DNA of 64,000 nucleotides from positions 1 through 64,000 of the forward strand of contig NZ_CP113066.1 of assembly GCF_026625845.1 (NCBI RefSeq), read 5' to 3'. A model generated the notes under the pieces. It saw only the letters and a list, made by a program, of their open reading frames with translations. It searched no databases and had not been told where the DNA came from. The stretch comes from Agrococcus sp. SL85 (GTDB taxonomy: Bacteria > Actinomycetota > Actinomycetes > Actinomycetales > Microbacteriaceae). Shown here piece by piece: positions 13,337 through 61,908 of the stretch (its first letter is position 1; each line of letters begins with the position of its first letter). The position numbers were made by a program, and so were the translations under genes.

Positions 13337-15810
13337 CTAGTCGCGGAGCCGCGCGCCGTGGCGCTCGGCCGCGACGGCGACGCCCGAGAGCTTCGCCTCG
13401 GTCGCCTCGGCAGCGGTGAGCGTGCGGTCGGCGGCGCGGAAGCGGAGCGCGAACGTCAGCGACTTCTCGCCCTCGCCGAGGCCCGCGCCCCGGTAGTCGT
13501 CGACGAGCGCGATGTGCTCGAGCAGCGCGCCGGCGCCCTCGCGCACGGCGGTGAGGACCTGCCCGGCGGGGACCGCCGCGGGCACGACGAGCGAGAGGTC
13601 CTGCGTCGCCGCCGGCACGGGCGCGATCCGCAGCGTGTCGAGGCCCACGCGCGCCGCGGCGATGATCGCGCCGAGGTCGAGGCTCCGCGACCGCGACGAC
13701 GCGCGGCAGGTCGGCCGCCTCGGCGACGGCCGGCAGCAGGCTCGCCCGCGACGCCGACGACCGCGCCGTCGACGAGCAGGCTCGGCCGTGCGACCGGGGT
13801 GCAGCCACGGCCGCTCCGCCTGCCGCAGGCTCGAGCGCGAGGCCCGCGGTGCGCGCGACGCGCTCGGCCACCTCGACGGCGTCGGCGAGCCCGTAGCGCA
13901 CCGCGGCGACGCCGGGCTGCTTGCGGACGCGCTCGCCGAGCAGCACCGCCGCGAGGCGCAGCGGCTGCTCGGGCAGGCGGTCGAGCGCCTCGAGCACGTC
14001 GTCGCTCGGGCGGCCCGCGGCCTCGGGCAGCGCCTCGGTGCCGTGGCCCTCGGTCGCGAGGAAGGCGTGGCCGATCTCGAAGAGCGCGAGGTCGGTCAGG
14101 CCACGACCCAGGTTGCGGTGGGCGGTGTCGAGCATCCCGGGGACGAGCGCGGTGCGCAGCCAGGGGCGCTCGCCGTCGAGGGGGTTCTCGAGGCGCACGG
14201 GCTCGTCGCCCGCGAGCCGCGCCTGCGCCTCGGTGACGAAGGGCGCCACGAGCACCTCGGTGAGGCCCGCGGCGGCGAGGCCGTCGGCGACGCGGCGGCG
14301 GAGCCGCTGCGCGCGGGTGTGGCCCCGACCCGGCGGGGCGACCGGGAGGACGGCGGGGATGCGGTCGAAGCCCACGACGCGCGCGACCTCCTCCACGAGG
14401 CCCTCGCGGTCGACGAGGTCGGGGCGCCACGACGGCGGCACGACGACCCACGACGCGCCGTCCTCCTCGACCGCCGCACCGATGCGCTCGAGCGCGTCGC
14501 GCGCCTCGGCGTCGAGGTAGTCGGCGCCGGTGTGGGCGCGCCAGTAGCCGACCGGGATGGCGATCGGCTCGCGCGCGGCCACCTCGCCGACGCGCGCGCC
14601 GAGCGCGTCGAGCGTGCCGCCCGCGAGCTCGACGAGCAGGCTGGGCGACGCGCGCCGCCGCCGCGTCGGCGACCGCGGGGTCGACGCCGCGCTCGAAGCG
14701 CTTCGAGGCCTCCGAGAACAGCTTGTGCCGGCGCGCGGTGCGGCCGATCGAGACGCCGTCGAAGGTCGCCGCCTCGATGAGCACGTCGGTCGTCGCCGAG
14801 CCGATCTCGGTCTCGGCGCCGCCCATGACGCCCGCGAGGCCGATCGCGCCGCGGTCGTCGGTGATGACGAGGTCCTCGGGGTGCAGGGCGCGGTCGACGC
14901 CGTCGAGCGTCGTGAGCCGCTCCCCCTGCTGCGCGCGGCGCACGCCGAGGCCGCCGCGGAGCGTGCCGAGGTCGTAGCCGTGGATCGGCTGGCCGAGCTC
15001 GAGCATGACGTAGTTCGTGATGTCGACCGGGAGCGAGATCGAGCGGATGCCCGCGAGCCGCAGGCGCGCCGCGAGCCAGCCGGGCGTCGCGCGGCCGGGG
15101 TCGATGCCGCGCACGACCCGCACGACGAAGCGCGAGCAGCCGACGCGACCGCGGATGGGCGCGTCGTCGTCGATCGCGACGGGGAAGCCGCGGCCCTCTC
15201 CCGCGTCGACCGCCGCCGGGTCGCGGAAGGCCTGCCCGGTGGCGGAGGCGACCTCGCGCGCGATGCCGCGGAGCGAGAGCGCGTAGCCGCGGTCGGGCGT
15301 GACGTTGATCTCGACGGCCTGGTCGTCGAGGCCGAGGATCGCGAGGGCGTCCTCGCCGACCTCGCCGGGGATCCCGAGCTGGTCGAGCCGCATGATGCCG
15401 TCGTGGTCGTCGCCGAGCCCGAGCTCGCGCTCGGAGGCGATCATGCCGTCGGAGACGTGGCCGTAGGTCTTGCGCGCGGCGATCTCGAAGCCGCCGGGCA
15501 GCGCGGCGCCCGGGAGCGTCACGACGACGCGGTCGCCCTCGACGAAGTTCAGCGCGCCGCAGACGATGCCGCGGACGCCGCCGTTCGCCTCGCCGACGTC
15601 GACCTGGCACCAGCGGATCGTCTTGCCGTTCTTCTGCGGCTCCGCCTCGATCGAGAGGACCCTGCCGACGACGATCGGCCCGCGGAGGTCGCCGCCGTGC
15701 ACGGCCTCCTCCTCGAAGCCGACGCGCACGAGGGTCGCGTGGAGCCACGCGGCGGCGTCCTCCGTGGGGACGTCGACGTGGTCGCGGAGCCAGGAGAGCG
15801 GGATGCGCAT
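13337..15810 (-). CDS. pheT: phenylalanyl-tRNA synthetase beta subunit, frame broken five times as read
   Basis: Beta subunit of the (alpha-beta)2 PheRS. It recognises tRNA-Phe and edits mischarged Tyr. In order: an N-terminal tRNA-binding OB domain (from MRIPLSWLRDHV), a B3/4 editing domain, B5, a class II-like core, and a C-terminal anticodon-binding FDX domain. As read, five single-base insertions split it across all three frames: near 14640, 13804, 13780, 13740 and 13682. Removing them gives exactly 823 codons (822 residues), normal for the family. Four insertions sit inside an AGCT site (see findings). The fifth restores the conserved LHPGR motif. pheT is essential, so sequencing error is far likelier than decay. 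The start is one base after pheS. Confidence 0.93.
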
Positions 15811-15811
15811 C

Positions 15812-16858
15812 TCAGATCACCATCCCGAACTGCTCGGTGAAGCGGACGTCGCCCTCGATCATGTCGCGCATGTCGTCGAGCTGGTAGCGGAACTGGAGGG
15901 TGCGCTCGATGCCCATGCCGAACGCGAAGCCCGAGTACACCTCAGGGTCGACGCCGGCGGCGCGGAGCACGTTGGGGTTGACCATGCCGCAGCCGCCCCA
16001 CTCGACCCAGCGCGGGCCGCCGCGCATGCCGGGGTGCCACACGTCCATCTCGGCGCTCGGCTCGGTGAACGGGAAGTAGTTGGGGCGCAGGCGGATGCGC
16101 GCCTCCTCGCCGAACATCTGGCGGGCCAGGTGCTCGAGCGTGCCGCGCAGGTGGGCCATGGTGATGCCCTCGTCGACGGCGAGGCCCTCGAGCTGCGTGA
16201 AGACGGGCAGGTGCGTGGCGTCGATGTCGTCGGTGCGGTAGACGCGGCCGGGCGCGACGACGTACACGGGCAGCTCGCGCGTGAGGAGCGAGCGGATCTG
16301 CACGGGGCTCGTCTGGGTGCGGAGCACCAGGTGGCGGTCGGCGGGCGCGACGTAGAAGGTGTCTGACTCGCTGCGCGCCGGGTGGTCGGGGTCGACGTTC
16401 AGGGCGTCGAAGTTGTACCACTCGTGCTCGAGCTCGGGGCCCTCGGCGATCTCCCAACCCATGCCGACGAAGACGTCGCCCATCTCGTCCATGAGCATCG
16501 TGAGCGGGTGGCGGCCGCCGGGTCGCTGGAGGCGCGGGAGCGCGGTGACGTCGACGCGCTCGGCCTCGAGCTGCACCGCCTGCTCGGCGGCCTCGAGCTC
16601 GGCCAGCCGCGCCGCGATCGCGGCGCCGACCTGCTGGCGACCGCCGCCGATCAGCTGCCCTGCCGCCTTCCGGTCCTCCGGGGCGATGTCGCGGAGCGAG
16701 GCGTTGAGCGCGGCGAGCTCGCTGCCCTGGCCGTTGTGCTGGCCCTTCGCGGCCTGCAGCTCGGCGGTGGTCTGGGCGGCCTCGATCGCGCTGAGCGCCG
16801 CGGCCACCGCGGCGTTGACGCGCGCGCCGAGGTCGGCGGAGGTGTCGGGGGGAGTCAC
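15812..16858 (-). CDS. pheS: phenylalanyl-tRNA synthetase alpha subunit
   Basis: Catalytic subunit of PheRS, class II. 348 residues. An N-terminal coiled-coil arm (about 1-95) contacts tRNA. The class II core follows, with substrate-site segments such as HPARSES near 176-182 and a motif 3 GMGIER near 326-331. The start is GTG at 16856-16858. The stop is one base from the pheT ATG, so the pair is an operon. The frame is intact, in contrast to pheT next door. Confidence 0.97.
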   Translation of the reverse strand: MTPPDTSADLGARVNAAVAAALSAIEAAQTTAELQAAKGQHNGQGSELAALNASLRDIAPEDRKAAGQLIGGGRQQVGAAIAARLAELEAAEQAVQLEAERVDVTALPRLQRPGGRHPLTMLMDEMGDVFVGMGWEIAEGPELEHEWYNFDALNVDPDHPARSESDTFYVAPADRHLVLRTQTSPVQIRSLLTRELPVYVVAPGRVYRTDDIDATHLPVFTQLEGLAVDEGITMAHLRGTLEHLARQMFGEEARIRLRPNYFPFTEPSAEMDVWHPGMRGGPRWVEWGGCGMVNPNVLRAAGVDPEVYSGFAFGMGIERTLQFRYQLDDMRDMIEGDVRFTEQFGMVI

Positions 16859-61047: not shown

Positions 61048-61076
61048 GTCGGCCCTCCCCTCAGCCGGGAGCAACG

Positions 61077-61908
61077 CTAGCGCGGCCCCCGATGCCCCGC
61101 GCGCGATGCGCGGTCGGCGCACGGGCGCCGGGCGGTGACGGCGGTCGCGCCGATCTCGTCGTCCTCGTGCACGCGCGCGCCCTGCAGCCCCGCGGCCTCG
61201 AGGATCCGGATCGCCTCGGCGACCTGCGGCGGCGCGACCTCGGTGCCGACGAGGCCGCCGGGCGCGAGCCGCGCGGCGACCTGCGGGGCGAGCGCGCGCA
61301 GGGGCTCGAGGCCGTCGGGGCCGCCGTCGAGCGCGAGCGGCGGCTCGTGCTCGCGCGCGTCGCGCGGGAGGTGCGCGAGCTCGGCCGTGGGCACGTACGG
61401 GAGGTTCGCGGCGACGGCGTCGAAGCGGAGGCCCTGCGGCAGCGCACCGAGGTCGGCGCCCAGCAGCACGAGCGCACCGGGGAGGTTGGCGCGCGCGTTG
61501 GCGACGGCGGCGGGATCGGCGTCGACCGCCGCGATGCGCAGGCCCGGCACCCGGTGGGCGGCGAGCGCCGCGATCGCGCCGGTGCCGCAGCCGAGGTCGA
61601 GGAGGCTCGCGCCGCCGCGCGCGGCGGCAGCCGCCGCGAGCGCCGCGGCGACGAGGCGCGCGAGGAGCAGGGTGCGGCGGCGCGGCACGAACACCCCCGG
61701 GCGCACGAGCACGCGCAGGCTCGCCGAAGGCGGCGCCGCCGACCACCACCTCGATCGGCTCGCCCGCGATGCGGCGCGCGACCATCGCGTCGAGCGATCC
61801 GGCGTCCGCGGCCGCGCGCCGCAGCTCGGCGAGCTCGGCCTCGGCGAAGGCGCTGCCCGAGGCGCGGAGCGCGGCGATGCGCGCCGCGTCGTCCTCGTGC
61901 CCCGCCAT
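61077..61908 (-). CDS. PrmC-related N5-glutamine methyltransferase, frame broken once as read
   Basis: 276 residues after correction. An N-terminal helical domain (about 1-75) is followed by a SAM fold with LLDLGCGTGAIAALA and the acidic AVDADP. The catalytic motif is NLPYVP instead of the NPPY of true PrmC. It therefore fits the actinobacterial PrmC-related family of unknown substrate. As read, an extra base at 61717-61721 (AGGCT for AGCT, plus strand) breaks the frame in FGE/LRVLV. It starts 106 bases from the divergent M20 peptidase gene and ends 29 bases before kynA. Confidence 0.85.

What the first reader, a model, noticed from the sequence alone, without database searches (positions are those of the whole stretch)
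13680..61721. Frameshifts cluster in AGCT palindromes: a possible methylation footprint
Seen: pheT, lexA, clgR, ftsK, the kyn amidohydrolase and the PrmC-like gene are broken by single inserted bases. Nine of these insertions fall in the middle of AGCT, read as AGGCT or AGCCT: 13680-13684, 13738-13742, 13778-13782, 14638-14642, 28406-28410, 37872-37876, 40364-40368, 59708-59712 and 61717-61721. Removing one base at each site gives a whole, normal-length protein, and the totals divide by three exactly. AGCT makes up a small part of the DNA, so chance cannot explain nine of twelve. Most AGCT sites in the window remain intact, for example both flanking the lexA site. Inference: base-calling errors at a methylated AGCT (AluI-type specificity), or less likely a break-and-fill event at such sites in the living cell.
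Basis: partly seen in the sequence, partly recalled or inferred. Interest (0 to 1): 0.72.

Follow-up and report, generated by a model that had tools for sequence, protein, structure and literature searches.

The report
AGCT-linked assembly errors, not mutations
The broken genes in this Agrococcus genome are most likely reading errors made at the sequence AGCT, probably because the cell chemically marks it, and left uncorrected in very GC-rich patches, so these genes should not be taken as truly damaged.

Summary
All nine listed sites carry one extra base against A. terreus; a tenth (13827) lies in pheT; 59708 is ambiguous. In 244 kb aligned to A. terreus, 30 of 753 unsubstituted clean AGCT sites read AGGCT or AGCCT here; the reverse is 0 of 838. 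In 33-60 kb from each of seven relatives, none of 27 supported indels is AGCT-type. Single-copy pheT has five breaks, so the sequence, not the cell, is wrong. Best reading: long-read miscalling at AGCT, probably modified, left unrepaired in GC-rich DNA. One of two C5 methyltransferases found is itself split at GAGGCTC, though five relatives' copies are whole. Methylation, specificity and sequencing method could not be shown. Methylation-linked nanopore indels are published, mostly as missed bases; passages read from six papers did not describe this insertion pattern.

The parts
13343..15810 (-). pheT, only copy found in the genome, present as three pieces in different frames
   Evidence: TIGR00472 pieces 14641-15810, 13929-14639, 13343-13678; A. 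terreus PheT ORF is 822 aa
13680..13684 (+). AGGCT with one extra base, in pheT
   Evidence: +1 against 6 of 7 relatives
13738..13742 (+). AGGCT where A. terreus has AGCT, in pheT
   Evidence: 7 of 7 relatives; clean set
13778..13782 (+). AGGCT where A. terreus has AGCT, in pheT
   Evidence: 5 of 7 relatives; relatives vary CACCTC/CACGTC/CAGCTC here
14638..14642 (+). AGGCT where A. terreus has AGCT, in pheT; AGCT at 14626 is intact
   Evidence: 7 of 7
28406..28410 (+). AGGCT where A. terreus has AGCT, in lexA; AGCT at 28397 and 28413 intact
   Evidence: 7 of 7
37872..37876 (+). AGCCT where A. terreus has AGCT, in the ClgR-like gene (gene on - strand)
   Evidence: 6 of 6; A. terreus ORF matches ClgR NF041677 below its cut-off
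40364..40368 (+). AGCCT where A. terreus has AGCT, in ftsK (gene on - strand)
   Evidence: 5 of 5; FtsK best match, below the cut-off
59708..59712 (+). AGCCT with one extra base, in the gene next to a kynureninase-like gene; AGCT origin ambiguous
   Evidence: 3 of 4; relatives read GACCTT
61717..61721 (+). AGGCT where A. terreus has AGCT, in the PrmC-like gene (- strand)

Best explanation
The extra bases are errors in the assembly, not changes in the living DNA. Step 1 (inferred): long reads of native DNA are miscalled at AGCT by doubling a central base, most readily as CAG[G]CTC, probably because a cytosine in AGCT is modified by the strain's own C5 methyltransferase. Step 2 (inferred from a shown pattern): most AGCT sites were corrected, probably by short reads, and errors survive where that correction failed, in GC-rich pockets a few hundred bases wide. 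Shown: AGCT specificity, strain specificity within the genomes compared, orientation, GC dependence, clustering and single-copy pheT. Not shown: the modification, its enzyme, the sequencing method. The confidence given is for an assembly artefact at modified AGCT, whatever made the pockets. My split: artefact 0.97; modified AGCT as the cause about 0.7; polishing holes as the reason for the pockets 0.65.
For: AGCT specificity: 30 of 30 one-base insertions at A. terreus AGCT sites give AGGCT/AGCCT; reverse 0 of 838. Other assemblies: none AGCT-type among 27 supported events in seven relatives, 33-60 kb each (the one insertion spanning an AGCCT, in G017, is natural, all seven others compared have AGCCT too). 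Needed gene: only pheT, five breaks. No selection footprint: coding share 28 of 34 altered, 765 of 944 intact. Pockets: altered fraction by GC (+-100 bp): 1/96, 2/222, 2/278, 3/93, 12/45, 10/19 from below 0.70 to above 0.82; AUC 0.866; rings 15-60 and 60-150 bp away carry weight of their own. Clustering: 16 of 37 neighbouring clean sites within 200 bp are altered, against 1.7 by permutation and 3.6 when GC-matched (p 0.004). Orientation CAG[G]CTC 16, GAG[G]CTG 0, p 3e-5. Enzyme: C5 methyltransferase at G000:C1:1130979-1132461(-), whose two pieces meet in different frames at gggAGGCTcta, between residues contiguous in the five relatives aligned (469-492 aa). No match in A. terreus. Precedent: PMC12506013 (passages): of 103 ONT R10 indels in Neisseria, 33 on a methylated base and 44 within one base. 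PMC11261834 (passages): remaining ONT errors usually in long homopolymers and modification sites; GC-rich regions lose short-read depth. PMC12392509 (passages): only some occurrences of a methylated motif are affected.
Against: The published methylation-linked indels were nearly all missed bases; here all are gained bases. The sequencing method is unknown. PMC12392509 saw no clear link between genome-wide GC and error rate (passages). No general error excess in pockets: mismatch to A. terreus 14.2% around altered sites (21) and 16.6% in GC-matched pockets (59), p 0.11; of 30 other isolated indels 2 lie above 79.5% GC, where about 11% of positions lie, so only AGCT goes wrong there. Inside pockets some AGCT stay intact (14626; 50 of 72 sites above 79.5% GC), so immediate context matters too; the lexA and ftsK sites lie outside GC-rich pockets (76% and 70.5% GC), as does the break in the methyltransferase (65.5%). 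A. jenensis (G009) has a related methyltransferase and a close copy of its neighbour gene, yet shows no signature in 54 kb; its method is unknown. The methyltransferase's best PADLOC model is DruM2, a Druantia part, ahead of a type II model. C-to-T change at AGCT is not raised (3 against 3). GCAGGCTCG is most frequent per megabase here among 24 genomes, but only modestly (288 in 2.7 Mb; three larger genomes have more in all).
Confidence: 0.72

Rival explanations
1. Base-calling error at AGCT intrinsic to the instrument and GC-rich context, with no modified base.
For: The altered fraction tracks local GC strongly, and nothing here shows a modification.
Against: AGCT alone fails, with no rise of other isolated indels or mismatches in GC-rich pockets. 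Seven other genomes, three of them single-contig (G003, G009, G016), show none in the stretches compared, though their methods are unknown.
Confidence: 0.22
2. Real mutations: an in-cell process inserts a base at AGCT.
For: Insertions are motif-specific and oriented.
Against: The only pheT has five frame breaks; lexA and ftsK are also hit; altered and intact sites have the same coding share; GC-pocket clustering has no obvious in-cell reason.
Confidence: 0.02
3. Programmed or tolerated +1 frameshifting: the extra bases are real and ribosomes skip them.
For: The region is otherwise well conserved, about 88% nucleotide identity to A. terreus.
Against: Five sites in one gene without counterpart in the relatives; same coding share as intact sites; dependence on GC 60-150 bp away.
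Confidence: 0.01
4. Variant of the best explanation, not exclusive of it: modified AGCT miscalled in a long-read-only assembly, with pockets due to low long-read depth rather than failed short-read polishing.
For: Same AGCT evidence; clustering beyond GC fits low-depth spots.
Against: Below 78% GC only 5 of 596 clean sites are altered, which is easier to explain if a second data type corrected them.
Confidence: 0.25

Closest known systems
Methylation-linked indel errors in Oxford Nanopore R10 assemblies (Neisseria, PMC12506013, passages read)
   Same: Strain-dependent, at or next to a modified base, almost all 5mC, in the native-DNA kit (103 indels against 1 with the PCR kit); break typing loci
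   Different: There nearly all are missed bases; here all are gained bases doubling the centre of AGCT, with a fixed orientation and mostly in GC-rich pockets; no modification call exists here
R/Y ambiguity at motifs in ONT Kit 14 data (PMC11610573, passages)
   Same: Motif-bound consensus errors suspected from methylation
   Different: Base ambiguities (A/G, C/T), not insertions
Errors surviving short-read polishing in low-depth, GC-rich regions (PMC11261834, passages)
   Same: Would explain why survivors sit in GC-rich stretches
   Different: That paper tests polishers, not this motif or genus, and says extreme GC still needs study
Error classes in nanopore assemblies (PMC12392509, passages)
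   Same: Lists methylation motifs and local high GC as error sources, and says only some motif occurrences fail
   Different: Treats the two as separate classes; here they act together
5mC at GRGCYC in Propionibacterium freudenreichii (PMC11649196, passages)
   Same: High-GC bacterium with 5mC in a motif that includes GAGCTC
   Different: 20 of the 30 clean sites here (CAGCTC/GAGCTG 16, CAGCTG 4) are not GRGCYC

Membership tests
Methylation-linked long-read consensus error | Errors confined to a fixed short motif | tested here: met
   30 of 30 insertions at A. terreus AGCT sites are AGGCT/AGCCT; AGCT has the highest rate of tetramers with more than 50 sites; 23 of 36 isolated one-base insertions are of this type
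Methylation-linked long-read consensus error | Strain-specific, absent from relatives' assemblies | tested here: met
   None AGCT-type of 27 supported events in seven relatives, 33-60 kb each
Methylation-linked long-read consensus error | Modified base at the site | not testable with these tools
   No reads or signal held
Methylation-linked long-read consensus error | Disappears in amplified or short-read data | not testable with these tools
   No reads held
Methylation-linked long-read consensus error | Direction as in the one published example seen (a missed base) | tested here: not met
   All are gained bases; published ones nearly all missed. A difference from that example, not a defining rule
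Homopolymer error | Indels in runs of several identical bases | tested here: not met
   The errors turn a single G or C into two
Type II C5 methyltransferase (candidate enzyme, outside the window) | C5 methylase domain with its N- and C-terminal parts | tested here: met
   PF00145 positions 1-165 in one piece and 270-322 in the other; PADLOC ranks DruM2 first and a type II model second for both pieces
Type II C5 methyltransferase (candidate enzyme, outside the window) | Intact reading frame in this assembly | tested here: not met
   Two pieces in different frames, break at gggAGGCTcta
Type II C5 methyltransferase (candidate enzyme, outside the window) | Restriction partner | tested here: inconclusive
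   A convergent gene is also near the methylase cousin in 2 of 3 loci examined (G009, G004; not G008), but has no Pfam, NCBIfam or PADLOC match and no significant fold match
Type II C5 methyltransferase (candidate enzyme, outside the window) | AGCT specificity | not testable with these tools
   No specificity data found

The most novel reading that the evidence does not exclude
The strain carries an uncharacterised restriction-modification pair acting on AGCT, with a nuclease of a family no library here recognises, and its methylation is recorded in the public assembly as oriented one-base insertions, including in the methyltransferase gene itself. If so, frameshift maps of finished genomes can be mined as a record of methylation motifs without raw reads.
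Probability: 0.4. Interest if true: 0.5.

Novelty: new member of a known kind. Interest (0 to 1): 0.33.

Why it matters
Extrapolating 30 clean sites in 244 kb gives about 330 such insertions in this genome, so many of its genes, including essential ones, would be filed as broken or split. Anyone using it for gene loss, pseudogene counts or taxonomy would be misled. The two-factor rule (AGCT and local GC above about 80%) tells curators where to look, and the same test could flag other assemblies and suggest methylation motifs.

Tried and rejected
Rejected: intergenic AGGCT at 12595 and 39464 as further cases (relatives also have AGGCT). Rejected: the G017 event beside AGCCT as a counter-example. 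Two rRNA operons as natural replicates: the 3.2 kb compared differ at five columns, none an AGCT insertion, so uninformative. C-to-T decay at AGCT: 3 against 3, uninformative. Frame-switch scan without relatives: AGCCT/AGGCT had the highest rate of 5-mers with over 100 sites (58 of 472), second under a looser size limit, but it is also raised in A. terreus (14 of 308 against 2564 of 148852), in A. jenensis (6 of 61) and in G015 (11 of 73), so it is supportive at best; its 23 calls outside the aligned part again favour high GC, p 4e-6. K-mer count: weak. Other DNA methylase families PF01555, PF02384, PF02086: no match in the genome; further families and DNA phosphorothioation were not tested. 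A second C5 methylase, open and by my judgement prophage-like, lies at 1437164-1439479. Specificity of the first: none found in names given by sources or by paper searches (none; 20 of 32 papers listed, none opened). Paper searches on nanopore indels, methylation and polishing: 7 listed, none opened; 20 of 111 listed, 4 opened as passages; 2 listed, none opened; 1 listed, opened as passages. With PMC12067966 (passages) that is six papers, none read whole. Strain name not found; it is not A. phoenicis 1P02AA, whose contig is listed with 2,839,111 bases. Partner gene: AlphaFold model from 16 of the 115 proteins listed, pLDDT 83.6; best PDB match not significant (E 0.69).
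Full report
Where it comes from. The window is the first 64 kb of a 2,705,363-base single-contig genome. Its PheS is closest to Agrococcus terreus (93-94%), and 24 genomes of the genus, this one included, were searched. The A. terreus stretch aligns at about 88% over 5062-53653 and, at 84.8%, on to 63313, which allows indels to be placed base by base.

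Checking the observation. All nine sites are as written, and each shows one extra base against A. terreus. Under a strict rule (at least three relatives and half of those covering), the window has 13 supported indels, 8 at AGGCT/AGCCT; three of the other five are listed for A. terreus too. The same rule in seven relatives (33-60 kb each) finds 27 events; none is AGCT-type, after checking the one insertion that spans an AGCCT. I add a tenth site at 13827 in pheT and mark 59708 as ambiguous: relatives read GACCTT there. Gene names were tested on A. terreus ORFs: PheT and LexA pass the NCBIfam cut-off; ClgR, FtsK and PrmC-like are best matches below it; the kyn amidohydrolase name was not confirmed.

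Beyond the window. I compared the first 380 kb with 400 kb of A. terreus; 244,190 bases align. Of 36 isolated one-base insertions, 23 are AGGCT/AGCCT and 13 are not. Counting from the A. terreus side, 884 AGCT sites have clean flanks: 723 unchanged, 131 substituted, 30 with one base gained, all AGGCT or AGCCT. In the other direction, 838 AGCT sites of this genome were read in A. terreus: 723 AGCT, 111 substituted, 4 with other lengths, none AGGCT or AGCCT.

Two more regularities. First, orientation: in the 30 clean sites the inserted base makes CAG[G]CTC 16 times and GAG[G]CTG never, p 3e-5; 10 GAGCTC and 4 CAGCTG sites are symmetrical. Second, local GC: with +-100 bases, the altered share is 1/96, 2/222, 2/278, 3/93, 12/45 and 10/19 from below 0.70 to above 0.82. 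Rings 15-60 and 60-150 bases away carry weight of their own, and 150-400 do not. Altered sites also cluster: 16 of 37 neighbours within 200 bases are altered, 1.7 expected by permutation and 3.6 when GC-matched, p 0.004. In pheT all four AGCT-type sites between 13680 and 13831 are altered, with no intact AGCT from 13390 to 14625, while 14626 stays intact twelve bases from altered 14638. Not every case is GC-rich: lexA, ClgR and ftsK sites have 76, 74 and 70.5%. General quality is not lower in pockets: mismatch to A. terreus 14.2% in 21 altered pockets, 16.6% in 59 GC-matched ones, and 2 of 30 other isolated indels lie above 79.5% GC.

Why not biology. pheT is found once, in three pieces in different frames, with five breaks; a cell needs it (established knowledge). 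Altered sites are coding as often as intact ones, 28 of 34 against 765 of 944, by a rough gene caller that misses some real genes. So neither selection against broken genes nor a coding-only recoding signal is visible.

Mechanism. Shown: motif, direction, orientation, strain specificity among the genomes compared, GC dependence, clustering. Inferred: native long reads double the centre of AGCT; correction by another data type removed most errors; GC-rich pockets escaped. GC-rich loss of short-read depth and errors at modification sites are described in PMC11261834 (passages). Indels at or next to methylated bases are described in PMC12506013 (passages), but as missed bases.

Candidate enzyme. 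PF00145 finds two C5 methylases. One, at 1437164-1439479, is open and, in my judgement, prophage-like. The other, 1130979-1132461 on the minus strand, is split in two frames at gggAGGCTcta, between residues that are contiguous in the five relatives aligned. Thus the gene I think most likely to cause the pattern shows it, in a stretch of ordinary GC (65.5%). It has no match in A. terreus; 12 of 23 other genomes have some match, five at 48-55% identity. PADLOC ranks it first as DruM2, second as a type II methylase. It may be the restriction partner. Specificity for AGCT is a guess.

Verdict.

Noticed in passing
window 48696: One base missing against all five relatives shown there, in a gene whose A. 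terreus ORF resembles GNAT acetyltransferases (below cut-off); not at AGCT.
   Followed up: partly
window 4246-4254: The two 16S rRNA copies differ in a short stretch (TCTTAGTG-CGTA against TCTCCGTGTCGT) just before AGCTAACGC.
   Followed up: no
L147:8232-9020 (G000:C1:1130232-1131020): Gene converging on the C5 methylase, 260 aa, 115 proteins listed, invariant GFDL...WS.K in 16 aligned, no known family; possible unrecognised nuclease.
   Followed up: partly
L147:10766-11926: ParB-like protein upstream of the methylase; its N-terminal part matches PADLOC PD-Lambda-5_A (E 9.5e-25, residues 24-172): possible defence island.
   Followed up: no
window 1-64000: AGCT is over-represented: 267 sites against 194 expected from shuffles, so no sign of avoidance.
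   Followed up: no
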